Source: an uncultured Pseudohongiella sp. (GTDB lineage Bacteria; Pseudomonadota; Gammaproteobacteria; Pseudomonadales; Pseudohongiellaceae). Taken from it: a stretch of DNA of 64,000 nt. A program made the translations under genes and the position numbers. The notes beneath the pieces are model-generated. The model was not told where the DNA came from and did not search any database. It saw only the letters and a list, made by a program, of their open reading frames with translations. Shown here piece by piece: positions 40,012-50,888 of the stretch. The DNA lies in assembly GCA_951812965.1 (NCBI GenBank), contig OX638341.1:2090438-2154437 (forward strand), given 5' to 3'. Every line of letters begins with the position of its first letter. Positions within the stretch are counted from its first letter, which is position 1.

Positions 40012-41289
40012 ATGCGGTCTCACCGGGTCCAGATACTATTCCTGCTGATCTCGATATTCTTCAGTGGAGTTGTTTCAGCAAACGAGGGCAGCATCGCCTT
40101 CACCGGCGCCATGATCATCGATGGCACGGATGCCGCGCCGCTGGCGGACGGTGTGCTCGTCATTACCGACGGGCGCGTGCGCAGCATCGGCCCGGCTTCC
40201 GAAGTGAGCATTCCCGCGGACGCCGAACGCGTCGATGTCGGCGGCAAGGCGATCATGCCCGGCATGGTCAACGCCCACGGCCATGTCGGCGACACGCTGG
40301 GCCTGGAAACCGGCCATTACAGCCGCGAAAACGTGCTCGACCAGCTTGGCCTGTACGCGCGTTACGGCATCACCACGGTGCTCAGCCTCGGCGGCGACGA
40401 GGCGCCGGGCTTCCAGGTGCGCAACGAGCAATACCATGCCGGGCTCGACCGGGCGCGGCTGTATGTCGCCGGCAGCGTGGTAAACGGCGACAATCTGCCG
40501 GAAATCCGCAGCCAGTTGAACGCCAACGCCGATTTCGGCGCCGATTTCATCAAGACGCGTATCGACTCCGAACTCGGCCAGTTGCCGACCCTGGCGCCGG
40601 AGGTATTTCAGTCCTTGATGGACCTTGCCGCCAGCCGCAGACTGCCCGTAGCGGTGCATATCTACTATCTGGAAGACGCGCGCATGGTGCTCGAGGCAGG
40701 CGCCGAAATCATCGCCCATTCGGTGCGCGATCTTGAAGTCGACCGGGACTTCATCGAACTGATGATCGAAAACGACGCCTGCTATATCCCCACCATGATG
40801 CGCGACGTTTCGACTTTCGTGTACGAGTCCGAACCCGAATTCTTTTCCGACCCGTTTTTCCTCGCCGAGGCCGATCCTGCGGTCATCGCCGGGTTGAGTA
40901 CTCCCGAGTATCGCTCAAGCATCCGCAACAGCCCGGCCTCGCAGCAATACAAGACGGACTTGCCGAACGCGCTGGTCAACGTGGGACTGCTGCATGAAGC
41001 CGGCGTACGCGTTGCCATGGGCACAGACACCGGACCTCCGGCGCGCTTCCAGGGCTATTTCGAGCACGAGGAATTGCGGATGATGGTGGACGCCGGCATG
41101 AGCCCGGCTGACGCGATTCGCGCCGCCACCGGAGTGGCGGCGGAATGCATCGGTCAAAGCGAGATAGGCACGCTCGAGCCCGGCAACTGGGGCGATTTCA
41201 TCGTGCTCGACGGGAATCCAGCGGAAGATATCGCCAACACCCGCCTCATCGACAGCGTCTGGATCGCGGGCAATCGCGTGCCGCGCTGA
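40012..41289 (+). CDS. exported imidazolonepropionase-like amidohydrolase
   Basis: The 425-residue protein has a signal peptide (ILFLLISIFFSGVVSAN) and the amidohydrolase-1 core: IMPGMVNAHGHVGD near residue 83, PVAVHIYYLEDARMVLEAGAEIIAHSV near residue 205, VAMGTDTGPPARFQGY near residue 338 and LEPGNWGDFIVLDGNP near the end. The residue after DF in the GADFIKTRID segment is the position of the carbamylated Lys in this family (FIK). Exported relatives include prolidase-like and organophosphate-hydrolysing enzymes. The substrate is unknown. It starts 53 bases after tRNA-Arg. Confidence 0.86.
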   Translation: MRSHRVQILFLLISIFFSGVVSANEGSIAFTGAMIIDGTDAAPLADGVLVITDGRVRSIGPASEVSIPADAERVDVGGKAIMPGMVNAHGHVGDTLGLETGHYSRENVLDQLGLYARYGITTVLSLGGDEAPGFQVRNEQYHAGLDRARLYVAGSVVNGDNLPEIRSQLNANADFGADFIKTRIDSELGQLPTLAPEVFQSLMDLAASRRLPVAVHIYYLEDARMVLEAGAEIIAHSVRDLEVDRDFIELMIENDACYIPTMMRDVSTFVYESEPEFFSDPFFLAEADPAVIAGLSTPEYRSSIRNSPASQQYKTDLPNALVNVGLLHEAGVRVAMGTDTGPPARFQGYFEHEELRMMVDAGMSPADAIRAATGVAAECIGQSEIGTLEPGNWGDFIVLDGNPAEDIANTRLIDSVWIAGNRVPR

Positions 41290-41298
41290 CTCGGCGGC

Positions 41299-41313
41299 GG
41301 GCGAGGCATGCCT
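41299..41313. repeat. left half of a REP-like palindrome split by IS110 element 1
   Basis: GGGCGAGGCATGCCT matches the reference repeat up to its central right side and then stops at the element's left end. The missing right half (CTCGCCCCTACA) is found directly after the element at 42560-42571. Confidence 0.9.
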
Positions 41314-41370
41314 TGTCTGTTACTAGTCTGTTAGATTGAATCCCACATCTGGGCCCACGGGAGGGTCCAG

Positions 41371-41534
41371 CCTTCGGCGCCCGATGCATCGGGCGCCGAA
41401 GGTGGCGGTGGACGGGCCGTAGGCATGCTGGTCTTAGAGACCGTGGGCGAGCGTGGCCGCCACCGTCTTTCCCGACATCCTGAACGGTTGCGTGGGCTAC
41501 GAGCCCGAATGACAAGGTGAGGAGGACGGAAAAG
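41371..41534 (+). ncRNA. candidate bridge RNA of IS110 element 1
   Basis: It starts with a perfect 32-bp palindrome (arms CCTTCGGCGCCCGATG and complement, 41371-41402). Loop one is closed by GGTGGCGG (41401-41408) and CCGCCACC (41457-41464). It contains AGGCATGC (41421-41428), identical to the left flank 41304-41311, and GGGCGAG (41445-41451), complementary to the right flank CTCGCCC 42560-42566. Loop two is closed by TTTCC (41468-41472) and GGAAA (41528-41532) and holds the two donor guides. The order matches the target and donor loops of IS621 bridge RNA. The exact RNA ends are not known. Confidence 0.85.
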
Positions 41535-42500
41535 ATGTCTGAGTATAACCCGGATTTTGTTGGTGTCGATGTATCGAAAGACTTTCTGGACGCGCATCGG
41601 CTGCGTGACGGCGTAGCAAAGCGCTATGCCAATGATCCCGGCGGGATCCGCGCACTATTGCGCTGGGCCGGACCGGAGGTGCGCGGCGTGGTGTACGAGC
41701 CGAGCGGCCCCTACCACCGCGATCTCGAGCAGGCGCTGCTGAACGCGAGCATGACAGCGCTGAAAGCGAACCCGCGGCGGGCGCGGGAGTTCGCGCGTGC
41801 GGCCGGGCGACTGGCCAAGACCGATCGCGCCGATGCCGAATGTCTGGCGCGCATGGGCGTTGCGCTGCCCCTGCGCCCGGTCAAACCGCGCTCGAAGCAG
41901 CAGCGGGAACTGGCCGAACTTACCCTGCTGCGCGATAGCCTGGTCCGGCAACATGTGGCCGAGAACAATCGCAGCGGGCAACTCCAGTTCGCCTATGCCA
42001 AACGCTTCCAGCAACAGTGCATCCGCCAACTGGCGAGAAAAATCGCCCAGTTGGACAAGCGCATCGCAGAACTGGTCCAGGCCGATCCCGACTTGGCGCA
42101 TAGCTTGGCCTTGCTGACCTCCATCCCTGGCATCGGCCACCAGACCGCCGTCATCCTGTTGACCGACATGCCCGAACTCGGACAGCTCGATCCCAAGGCC
42201 GTCGGCAGCCTCGCCGGCCTGGCTCCGGTGGCGCGCGACTCCGGCTTGCGCAGTGGGAAGCGGCATATCCAGGGCGGACGACCACGTGTACGCCGAAGCT
42301 TGTACATGGCTGCGCTCGCCGCAATTCGTTGCGCGCCACCGCTGAAAATCAAGTACCAGCGAATGAAAAACGCCGGCAAACCCCCAAAAGTCGCCATCGT
42401 CGCCATCATGCGCAATCTCGCCGTACTCGCGAACCACTTGCTCGCCGAAAATCAGCCATGGTCTCCCGAACCACCACGAAGAGCGGCTTGCGCCTCTTGA
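41535..42500 (+). CDS. IS110-family transposase (DEDD recombinase)
   Basis: The 321-residue recombinase has an N-terminal RuvC-like DEDD domain with Asp12 (VGVDVSK), Glu55 (YEPSGPY), and Asp97 and Asp100 (KTDRADAE). The C-terminal Tnp domain contains SIPGIGHQTAVILLTD and GLAPVARDSGLRSGKRHIQGG, with Ser235 the likely catalytic serine. IS110 enzymes cut and join through the DEDD site and the serine, guided by the bridge RNA. GGAGGA precedes the ATG and overlaps the last RNA stem, so translation and RNA folding may compete. The gene looks intact. Confidence 0.95.
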   Translation: MSEYNPDFVGVDVSKDFLDAHRLRDGVAKRYANDPGGIRALLRWAGPEVRGVVYEPSGPYHRDLEQALLNASMTALKANPRRAREFARAAGRLAKTDRADAECLARMGVALPLRPVKPRSKQQRELAELTLLRDSLVRQHVAENNRSGQLQFAYAKRFQQQCIRQLARKIAQLDKRIAELVQADPDLAHSLALLTSIPGIGHQTAVILLTDMPELGQLDPKAVGSLAGLAPVARDSGLRSGKRHIQGGRPRVRRSLYMAALAAIRCAPPLKIKYQRMKNAGKPPKVAIVAIMRNLAVLANHLLAENQPWSPEPPRRAACAS

Positions 42501-42600
42501 TTACAACGACTTCAACCCGGAGGATACAATCTGAATCAATACTTCACGCAACACGGTTGCTCGCCCCTACAATCGAATTGGCATCGCAGTTTACGCTGGC

Positions 42601-42626
42601 TGTAGGGGCGACGCATGCGTCGCCCG
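42601..42626. repeat. REP-like palindrome (GACGCATGCGTC variant)
   Basis: TGTAGGGGCGACGCATGCG continues into TCGCCCGCC. It lies 40 bases after the right end of IS110 element 1, downstream of the aldolase gene. Confidence 0.85.
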
Positions 42627-42637
42627 CCAGATATAGA

Positions 42638-43501
42638 TCAGGGACAGGGATCCTCGCCTTGCACCGGGGTGGCGCCCGAGGGCAGGAACCGGCACGGGTC
42701 CGATTCTTCCAGCATTACCCGCGCACCAGCGCGAATGATCGCGTTCGTGCCCGGGGCCTGGAAAAAGTTGTAGCCTTCCCGGCTGGTCATCCAGGCCGAA
42801 GGCCCGCCGAGATATTTACCGGCGCCGTTCGTATCCCCCACGACCTTGTCCACCAGCGCCTCGTATTCCGGGTCCCCCTGGCGTCGGCCGCTGAAGCTGC
42901 CGAGGTCGGAACTGGCGACGAAGACCACGTCGACGCCTTCAACCGCGGCAATCTCATCGGCCGCCTCGACGCCTTCCATGGTCTCGATCATGGCGATGAC
43001 CATGATGTTGTCATTGGCGCTCTGGCGATAGCCGCTGCCCCAGATCGCGCCGTATTGGCCACCGCCCTGGCTGCGACGCCCCATCGGCGGATACTTGGCG
43101 AAACGCACGGCGTTTTCCATTTTCCCGGCGGTGTCGACCATCGGCACGATAATGCCGAGAGCGCCGATATCGGTCGCCTTCTGGATATCGCCTTCGGTGG
43201 CGTCGGGTACGCGGATGAACGGAATTGCCGGGGCGTCGCGGCAGGCGTAGATCATGCGCGCCACGTCGGTGTAATTGAGATGGCTGTGCTGCATTTCGAT
43301 CCAGATGAAATCGAAGCCTGCGCCCGCCATGGCGCAATAGATGTCCGGGTCGGGCGTGGATACGGTGCCGCCAAGCACCTGTTCGCCGGCTTCGAGCTTC
43401 GCCTTGACGGTGTTGTAAAGCCCGCCGTCCTGGGCCGACGCCGCGGCGGTCCAGAGCAGGGCCGCCATGCCGGTAATCACGTATTTCAACAGGATTTTCA
43501 T
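42638..43501 (-). CDS. exported HpcH/HpaI-family aldolase
   Basis: The 287-residue protein has a signal peptide (KYVITGMAALLWTAAASAQ) before a HpcH/HpaI aldolase barrel. It reads GGTVSTPDPDIYCAMAGAGFDFIWIEMQHSHL near residues 45-75, PFIRVPDATEGDIQKATDIGALGIIVPMVDTA near residue 95, and IAMIETMEGVEAADEI near residue 170. VVFVASSDLGSFSG follows near residue 195. The metal ligands Glu (MIET) and Asp (SSDLG) and the substrate Arg (IRVP) are kept. Cytoplasmic relatives cleave 4-hydroxy-2-oxo acids or citramalyl-like esters; a periplasmic location is unusual. The selenoprotein gene lies 35 bases upstream, so co-transcription is likely. Confidence 0.87.
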   Translation of the reverse strand: MKILLKYVITGMAALLWTAAASAQDGGLYNTVKAKLEAGEQVLGGTVSTPDPDIYCAMAGAGFDFIWIEMQHSHLNYTDVARMIYACRDAPAIPFIRVPDATEGDIQKATDIGALGIIVPMVDTAGKMENAVRFAKYPPMGRRSQGGGQYGAIWGSGYRQSANDNIMVIAMIETMEGVEAADEIAAVEGVDVVFVASSDLGSFSGRRQGDPEYEALVDKVVGDTNGAGKYLGGPSAWMTSREGYNFFQAPGTNAIIRAGARVMLEESDPCRFLPSGATPVQGEDPCP

Positions 43502-49515: not shown

Positions 49516-49685
49516 AGCAGATCGCAGAAGCAACGAACGCATTGCCCCTGCGGACCGATTGTTCACTTGCACAACCGTAGTATCTATGTTTGCAAGTGTT
49601 CTGTTGTACGGATAGCAACAGGCTCCGACAGCTAGTTGATTAGGGGATGTGATCGCGGGCTGTTTGCATTGGTCAGGCGTTTGCA

Positions 49686-50690
49686 TCATCCCGCGACATG
49701 GGCCGGTTTGGGCATGTGAGCTGCCTGCCAGGGTTTTCCTTCCCGTACGATGGCATTCGCGATCAGCACCATCTTTCGCATGGCTGCGGTGACCGCGACT
49801 TTGCCGGGTTTGCCCTGTTGTTTGAATCGCAGGTGTCGCTCCCGCATGACGGGATTCCAGCGGATTGCAGCCAGCGTTGGCATGTACAGCAGCGTGCGTG
49901 CGCGTTTGCGGCCGCCGCGGATGGACCGTTTCCCGTGCCTATTGCCGGAGTCGTCGGCCACGGGCGCCAAGCCCAACAGGCTTCCCGCCTCGCGGGTGCT
50001 GAGTCTACCCAGTTCGGGCACCTGTACCAGCAGCCCAATAGCGGTAGGGCGGCCAATGCCCGGGATTGATTCCAGCAGCGCCATGTTTCGGGTCAACTCG
50101 GCGTCGGCCGTCACCAGCCGCTCCAGTTCTTTGTCCAAGCGTTCGGTCTGCTGCATGGCGCGGGTAATGTCCTTCTCGATCTCGCGACGAACCAGACGGT
50201 TCCGGGTGTGCTCCCGCCTGCCTTTCAGCACGGTGAGCGACTTCGTTACCGCCTCGCGCGCGCTACGCAACTCGTCCAGATCTTTCTCCTGTCGGGTACG
50301 CACCGGCGTCCCTTTCAGGTCGTCCGCCAGCGCCCGGCCCATCTTCGCCAGCGCCAGCGCGTCCGCCCGGTCCGTCTTCGCAACCGAACCCAGCGCTTCG
50401 GCAAAGCGCTTGCCTCGCTGGGGGTTGATCCGCGACAACGGCAGCCGATCGACCAACATATCCTCCAACAGTACGTGGTAGGAGCCGGTGGACTCGTATA
50501 CCACTCGCTCGACGCGGGGGCAGGCCCAGGTGCGAAACGCGCGAACGCCTTCCCTGGTATTCGGGAACCGGGCCTCGCGTCCGCTGGGGAGTTCACGCAC
50601 GTCAAGATGACGCTTGGAAACGTCGATGCCGACCGTGCAAGGGCCGGGGTCGTCTTTTGGATGTACACATCTTGCGCTATGCTTCTTCAT
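49686..50690 (-). CDS. IS110-family transposase (DEDD recombinase)
   Basis: The 334-residue recombinase has Asp23 (VGIDVSKRH), Glu66 (YESTGSYH), and Asp107 and Asp110 (KTDRADALALAKM) in the RuvC-like domain. A coiled-coil-like middle follows, and the C-terminal domain has SIPGIGRPTAIGLLVQVPELG and GLAPVADDSGNRHGKRSIRGGRKR with Ser248. It is clearly diverged from the transposase of element 1, so the two are different IS110 members. The frame is intact. The upstream structured RNA ends 2 bases before the ATG. Confidence 0.95.
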   Translation of the reverse strand: MKKHSARCVHPKDDPGPCTVGIDVSKRHLDVRELPSGREARFPNTREGVRAFRTWACPRVERVVYESTGSYHVLLEDMLVDRLPLSRINPQRGKRFAEALGSVAKTDRADALALAKMGRALADDLKGTPVRTRQEKDLDELRSAREAVTKSLTVLKGRREHTRNRLVRREIEKDITRAMQQTERLDKELERLVTADAELTRNMALLESIPGIGRPTAIGLLVQVPELGRLSTREAGSLLGLAPVADDSGNRHGKRSIRGGRKRARTLLYMPTLAAIRWNPVMRERHLRFKQQGKPGKVAVTAAMRKMVLIANAIVREGKPWQAAHMPKPAHVAG

Positions 50691-50692
50691 GC

Positions 50693-50847
50693 TTTCCAGT
50701 CTCCTATCCTTGTTTGCGGTCTTGATCCGCGTATCTATTCAGGTTTGATTGGAAAGGCGGTGGTCCCACTCTACGATTCGCATTTCATGCGAGGGGCGAT
50801 ACGGGTTCGCCACCGCCTGCCGACGGCCCACCAGTGGGCCGTCGGCA
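50693..50847 (-). ncRNA. candidate bridge RNA of IS110 element 2
   Basis: Read on the minus strand, a perfect 14-bp hairpin (TGCCGACGGCCCAC and complement, plus 50818-50847) is followed directly by loop one. It is closed by GGCGGTGG (plus 50810-50817) and CCACCGCC (plus 50756-50763). Loop one holds TCGCCCCT (plus 50792-50799), identical to the left flank including the core CT, and CGTAG (plus 50771-50775), complementary to the right flank CTACG. Loop two is closed by TTTCCA (plus 50750-50755) and TGGAAA (plus 50693-50698) and holds both donor guides. The architecture is the same as in element 1 despite different sequence. Confidence 0.85.
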
Positions 50848-50865
50848 GCACTATTTAAACAAACA

Positions 50866-50888
50866 AGGGGCGAGGCATGCCTCGCCCG
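50866..50888. repeat. REP-like palindrome interrupted on its left by IS110 element 2
   Basis: AGGGGCGAGGCATGCC continues into TCGCCCGC. The expected outer TGTAG is replaced by the end of IS110 element 2, so the element entered at the CT of the CCCCTAC arm rather than at the centre. Confidence 0.88.

What the first reader, a model, noticed from the sequence alone, without database searches (positions are those of the whole stretch)
41312..42561. IS110 element 1: bridge-RNA-like guides match ends and flanks
The RNA upstream of the transposase holds two donor-guide matches to the element ends (8 and 6 bases) and two target-guide matches to the flanking DNA (8 and 7 bases), each in the expected loop and polarity. 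This gives exact element ends without terminal repeats. The left target guide departs from the flank at the core dinucleotide itself (TG versus CT).
Basis: partly seen in the sequence, partly recalled or inferred. Interest (0 to 1): 0.85.

Follow-up and report, generated by a model that had tools for sequence, protein, structure and literature searches.

The report
Bridge-RNA jumping gene in palindromic repeats
A small mobile DNA element present in six identical copies in this genome sits every time at the same spot of one palindromic repeat, and the RNA it is predicted to make carries short matches to that repeat and to its own ends, which likely steer where it inserts, as in the known bridge-RNA elements.

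Summary
Element A (41314-42559 between two CT cores) is an IS110-group insertion sequence; its upstream 221 nt carry the four guide-like stretches described. Joint guide score 28: 0 of 3000 random CT-site pairs reach it. Six letter-identical copies in the genome have the same ends and all lie in the REP-like palindrome GGGCGAGGCATGC^CT^CGCCC, which exists uninterrupted hundreds of times. A covariance model built only from 17 plasmid relatives finds this RNA (86 bits) and that of a second element, B, and nothing else at E<1 in the window. Over 20 elements guides fit their own flanks better than swapped flanks (0 of 20000 permutations), though not every element does singly. The left-guide departure (UG for CU) is real and shared by both full copies in a sister species. 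Half of it is ordinary: 9 of 14 readable guides, A included, lack U at the second core base; U at the first is unique to A. New member of a known kind: IS621-like and REP-targeting. Unusual points: a palindromic target usable on either strand, a second IS110 in the same repeat 7 bp away, and the guide mismatch. RNA expression and transposition are untested.

The parts
41299..41313 (+). left flank: REP half GGGCGAGGCATGC plus core CT (41312-41313)
   Evidence: shared by 6 of 6 copies
41314..42559 (+). element A, IS110-group insertion sequence (plus one CT core)
   Evidence: six exact copies in the genome
41371..41402 (+). 5' stem-loop of the predicted bridge RNA
   Evidence: fold, z -5.9 for 41371-41534
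41404..41465 (+). target-binding loop (stem, LTG, hairpin, RTG)
   Evidence: fold and covariance model of relatives
41421..41428 (+). left target guide AGGCATGC; followed by UG (41429-41430) in place of the core CU
41445..41451 (+). right target guide GGGCGAG; handshake bases CG 41452-41453
41484..41491 (+). left donor guide ACGGTTG plus C of the core
41511..41516 (+). right donor guide GACAAG; handshake bases GU 41517-41518
41404..41526 (+). stretch matched by the covariance model of relatives (both loops)
   Evidence: 86.2 bits, E 3.6e-20
41535..42500 (+). DEDD/serine recombinase (321 aa)
   Evidence: PF01548, PF02371, NF033542; IS621 and ISCro4 recombinases
42553..42559 (+). right element end, left donor ACGGTTG
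42560..42566 (+). right flank: core CT plus CGCCC of the REP
   Evidence: shared by 6 of 6 copies
49581..50865 (-). element B, second IS110 in the same REP type, core CT at 50866-50867 and 49579-49580
   Evidence: its RNA 50699-50817

Best explanation
This is an IS110-group insertion sequence whose upstream RNA is predicted to act as a bridge RNA: one loop matches the REP-like palindrome in which all six copies sit and the other loop matches the element's own two ends. By analogy with IS621, the element would leave as a circle joined at the CT core; the bridge RNA would hold the circle's joint (ACGGTTG-CT-TGTC) in the donor loop and a REP (GGCATGC-CT-CGCCC) in the target loop, and the recombinase would exchange strands at CT. 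Shown here: the ends, the repeated target, the guide matches, the conserved RNA fold, and the joint change of guides and flanks across relatives. Inferred: transcription, circle formation and recombination. The REP is a perfect palindrome, so each REP carries the target on both strands; this fits insertion in both orientations relative to the REP tails (4 copies with GTAG on the left, 2 with CTAC on the right). The LTG mismatch at the core is likely tolerated: the first base could form a U:G wobble, and the second core base is not held as U in this clade.
For: Six exact copies, same ends, same repeat; 673 uninterrupted repeats at up to 2 mismatches, reversed control 0; guide score 28, 0 of 3000; fold z -5.9; 14 of 24 consensus pairs of 18 relatives change on both sides; covariance model without A and B finds A and B in the window and all 13 IS110 copies of the genome; guides fit own flanks over 20 elements, 0 of 20000 permutations; handshake base after the RTG pairs with donor position 7 in 18 of 19, base after the RDG with target position 7 in 16 of 19 plus one wobble; recombinase related to IS621 and ISCro4.
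Against: No RNA reads and no transposition data. No Rfam family matched at its cut-off. The LTG does not pair with the core as IS621's does. A promoter at the circle joint was not supported: 193 of 1000 shuffles score as well. Several relatives fit their own flank no better than many others (L080 8, L086 16, L090 8, L093 13, L094 12 of 19, L094 because its loop was misplaced). B's handshake base after the RTG does not pair.
Confidence: 0.93

Rival explanations
1. The recombinase finds the REP by protein contacts or DNA shape (the palindrome could extrude as a cruciform), and the RNA matches are incidental.
For: Every copy of A and of B in the genome lies in a REP, and REPs are palindromes; no expression data exist here.
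Against: Guides follow flanks across 20 elements (0 of 20000 permutations), and A and B hit different CTs of the same REP with different, matching guides. Sister copy L102 sits in a site whose left arm is degraded outside the guide-matched bases.
Confidence: 0.04
2. The LTG core mismatch means that this RNA is defective, and the copies were moved by another element's RNA.
For: U at the first core base is unique to A among 14 readable elements; core pairing is strongly preferred in IS621 (PMC11208160 section 8).
Against: All six copies are exact and carry UG, so it was there before they spread; both full copies in the sister species carry it, as does the left-end remnant L108 (read); the recombinase frame is open in all six.
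Confidence: 0.1

Closest known systems
IS621 of Escherichia coli (IS110 group; PMC11208160, PMC11208158)
   Same: DEDD/serine recombinase (100 bits), upstream RNA with two guide loops, CT core, insertion in REP elements, handshake bases
   Different: Other REP and donor sequences; the LTG here reads UG where IS621's reads the core CU; RTG match 7 nt against 4; the target is a perfect palindrome
ISPpu9 and ISPpu10 of Pseudomonas putida (PMC1525189)
   Same: Two IS110s in one genome, each with 7 of 7 copies in the host's REP, two-base repeats at the junction (passages)
   Different: There both use the same point of the REP; here A and B use CTs 7 bp apart. Their RNAs were not compared here
ISCro4 recombinase (PDB 9t56)
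   Same: Closest solved recombinase by sequence (114 bits)
   Different: Its RNA and target were not compared here

Membership tests
IS110 family | Recombinase with DEDD (RuvC-like) and Transposase_20 domains | tested here: met
   PF01548 and PF02371 above their cut-offs; NF033542 206 bits against cut-off 140
IS110 family | Conserved catalytic D, E, D, D and serine | tested here: met
   Read by eye from the alignment to the ISCro4 recombinase: gvDvsk, vvyEpsg, ktDraDa, ardSg all aligned; no activity test
IS110 group (against IS1111 group) | Longer non-coding region upstream of the gene | tested here: met
   221 nt upstream (41314-41534), 59 nt downstream (42501-42559)
IS1111 group | Longer non-coding region downstream of the gene | tested here: not met
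   Downstream region only 59 nt; subterminal inverted repeats were not searched for
Bridge-RNA element (IS621-like) | RNA with target and donor loops whose guides match flanks and ends | tested here: met
Bridge-RNA element (IS621-like) | LTG, RTG, LDG and RDG all pair with the core | tested here: inconclusive
   RTG and RDG pair with both core bases, LDG with the first; the LTG reads UG. Second-base freedom of the LTG is common in the clade
Bridge-RNA element (IS621-like) | Promoter rebuilt at the circle joint | tested here: inconclusive
   Best hexamer pair matched by 193 of 1000 shuffles
Bridge-RNA element (IS621-like) | RNA made, bound by the recombinase, and needed for recombination | not testable with these tools
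   Needs expression and recombination assays

The most novel reading that the evidence does not exclude
The LTG core mismatch is a protection device. The LTG is a literal copy of the left target, so a CU after it would put an intact target half plus core inside the element's own RNA gene; replacing the protein-read T of the core (UG here; CA, CC or CG in relatives) marks the guide as self and blocks insertion into itself. In A the change also breaks what would be a 10-nt self-complementary guide (AGGCAUGCCU, dimer -17.8 kcal/mol, against -12.2 with UG), a problem peculiar to palindromic targets. Fits: 9 of 14 readable LTGs lack T at the second core base and 18 of 20 LDGs lack it (L094 read from alignment A2). 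Against: IS621's LTG, 5 of 14 LTGs, and the LDGs of L095 and L097 keep T.
Probability: 0.13. Interest if true: 0.6.

Novelty: new member of a known kind. Interest (0 to 1): 0.36.

Why it matters
It is a natural, multi-copy IS110 whose target, ends and guides can all be read from sequence, with a second, diverged IS110 in the same genome reading the same repeat 7 bp away. That makes it a clean natural test of guide rules. It shows a spread element whose left target guide does not match the core, and a clade in which the second core base of that guide is free, which bears on how far core pairing is needed when bridge RNAs are designed. The palindromic target also predicts that both strands of each REP are usable and that an insertion leaves a complete target beside itself.

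Tried and rejected
Rfam scan of the window: only two tRNAs reached their cut-offs. The genome-contig scan gave 3 relatives at 45-46%; viral contigs gave none. An order-wide protein search of 390 genomes found, besides G000, only G416 (50-51%) at E up to 1e-60; it was not analysed further. A promoter at the circle joint was looked for and not supported. A one-base slip in the LTG (CCT to CT) was weighed: with one more C it would match the core, but the sister species carries the same UG and element B has the same LTG-RTG spacing of 23, so the short form is old. My first reading of IS621 (note: LTG pairs only to the first core base) was wrong; section 8 of PMC11208158 has A50-U58 pairing through both core bases, and the report uses that. 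A RAYT-type (Y1_Tnp) transposase was searched for and not found.

Rows dropped and weak points: 20 of the 125 plasmid records with a match were fetched. L085 and L089 have no located left core and are in no guide count. Left cores were found by the conserved motif NTTGTC; for L087, L088, L090 and L093 I chose one of two or three candidates by eye, and L097's came from the guide scan itself, so that row is partly circular. L087 (left core GT, one N) is in the permutation tests (20 elements) but not in the 19 rows. A1 has 18 relatives (no L087, L089), A2 has 17 (also no L085). In one search five of 19 LTG readings match fewer than 5 of 7 bases (L081, L086, L088, L093, L094); the tally of 14 leaves them out. 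In some searches the loop region of L094 was misplaced (a second ACGGATA in its gene), so its poor score is an artefact; the base after L086's RDG was misread. One search corrected both points for the donor side. After that check the LDG count changed from 15 of 15 to 18 of 20, and I lowered the novel reading from 0.15 to 0.13.

Full report
OBSERVATION. A script that demands all four, anchored at the CT core and in the order LTG, RTG, LDG, RDG, gives 28 matched bases (8+7+7+6, LDG counted without the core base). None of 3000 pairs of random CT sites from the window reaches it. Element B in the same window scores 26 (0 of 3000, same call).

ENDS. Search of the genome (one 3.43-Mb contig) with 41200-42700 finds six full copies (the window's included), a 125-bp right-end remnant and a 73% identical remnant. 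All six are exact from 41314 to 42559, share GGGCGAGGCATGCCT on the left and CTCGCCC on the right, and diverge outside. The repeat GGGCGAGGCATGCCTCGCCC, a perfect palindrome, is found uninterrupted at 673 places at up to 2 mismatches, against 0 for the reversed control. The 15-nt target AGGCATGC-CT-CGCCC occurs exactly 416 and 419 times on the two strands.

PROTEIN. PF01548 and PF02371, NCBIfam IS110 above its cut-off. The solved relatives found by sequence are the ISCro4 and IS621 recombinases. The nearest proteins in the large protein set are 93% and 78% identical; 4446 proteins pass E 1e-20 among the 7997 candidates scored.

RNA. 41371-41534 folds far better than shuffles (z -5.9), into a 5' stem-loop and two loops each with an inner hairpin. 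B's region has z -4.5. An alignment of 18 plasmid relatives gives a consensus in which 14 of 24 pairs have at least one change on both sides. A covariance model from 17 relatives, without A or B, matches A at 86 bits and B at 37 bits in the window; the third match is at E 3.6. In the whole genome it matches the six A and seven B copies and one weak place at E 0.096. The PF01548 matches in the genome are the same 13 elements.

GUIDES AGAINST FLANKS. In 20 of 20 fetched relatives (43-49% identical over the recombinase) an ACGG- or ACAG-type end followed by CT lies shortly after the stop codon. In 18 the left core was placed, five of these with some choice on my part (see Tried and rejected). Over A, B and these 18, guides fit their own flanks better than swapped ones: 0 of 20000 permutations, in two versions of the test. 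A fits 14 of 14 positions, with no other flank as good. Not all do: other flanks fit as well or better for L080 (8 of 19), L081 (4), L082 (3), L086 (16), L090 (8), L093 (13), L094 (12, loop misplaced by the script), and L079, L083 and L088 (1 each). Some may be off-target insertions or later changes. The handshake base after the RTG pairs with donor position 7 in 18 of 19 elements (T-A in 16, C-G in 2, A being one of the 2; B fails). The base after the RDG pairs with target position 7 in 16 of 19 plus one wobble, in three pair types. This handshake is described for IS621 in PMC11208158 (passages).

THE CORE MISMATCH. In IS621 the LTG pairs through both core bases (PMC11208158, section 8), and pairing with both strands of the core is strongly preferred (PMC11208160, section 8). 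A has UG. Among 14 elements with an LTG matching at least 5 of 7 bases (A included), the two core positions read CA 6, CT 5, CC 1, CG 1 and TG 1 (A). So the second base is not held in this clade, while the first is C in all but A, where U could wobble with G. Both full copies in the sister genome G465 (about 95% identical) have the same UG, so it is not a mutation of this copy. PMC11208160 selected only CT core guides in one of its natural analyses (passage), which would leave such cases out of it.

PALINDROME AND SECOND ELEMENT. Because the target is palindromic, both strands of each REP carry it. Four copies have the GTAG tail on the left and two have the CTAC tail on the right. The left flank of each copy, read on the other strand, is still a complete 15-nt target (41299-41313 in the window). 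Element B (seven of seven copies in the REP tail, TCGCCC^CT^ACGG) uses the next CT, 7 bp away, with its own matching guides; its 11-mer CTCGCCCCTAC occurs 248 and 243 times on the two strands, reversed control 1 and 0. ISPpu9 and ISPpu10 of P. putida are a precedent for two IS110s in one REP type, at one and the same point (PMC1525189, abstract and passages).

VERDICT. What is new is modest: another REP-targeting IS110 pair, and the naturally mismatched LTG core. The protection reading is a hypothesis with no direct test here.

Noticed in passing
G000 genome-wide; window 37846, 39763, 47502, 50868: A REP-like palindrome (GGGCGAGGCATGCCTCGCCC, often with GTAG/CTAC tails, paired or in arrays) at 673 places at up to 2 mismatches, yet no Y1_Tnp (RAYT-type) transposase was found in the genome; how it spread is unexplained.
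   Followed up: partly
L004 and L005, right flanks: Both A copies are followed by a second REP whose left half is replaced by CGCAACACGGTTG, the last bases of A's right end, joined to a REP spacer at CGCAAC: likely a deletion scar of an older A insertion, carried by two loci.
   Followed up: partly
L108 (G465): A 155-bp left-end remnant that keeps the target loop and is joined to CGCCCCTAC at a CT inside the RNA gene.
   Followed up: no
L007 and L008 (G000 2156351 and 1698424): A 125-bp exact right-end remnant of A beside an intact REP, and an older 73% identical right end whose last bases read ACCGTTG.
   Followed up: no
window 41519-41534: The 3' side of the donor loop overlaps the GGAGG in front of the recombinase start, so folding of the RNA and translation may compete on one transcript (by eye).
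   Followed up: no
L087 (Rhizobium tropici CIAT 899 plasmid c): Relative with left core GT but right core CT and LDG core base G: a possible core switch or decay.
   Followed up: no
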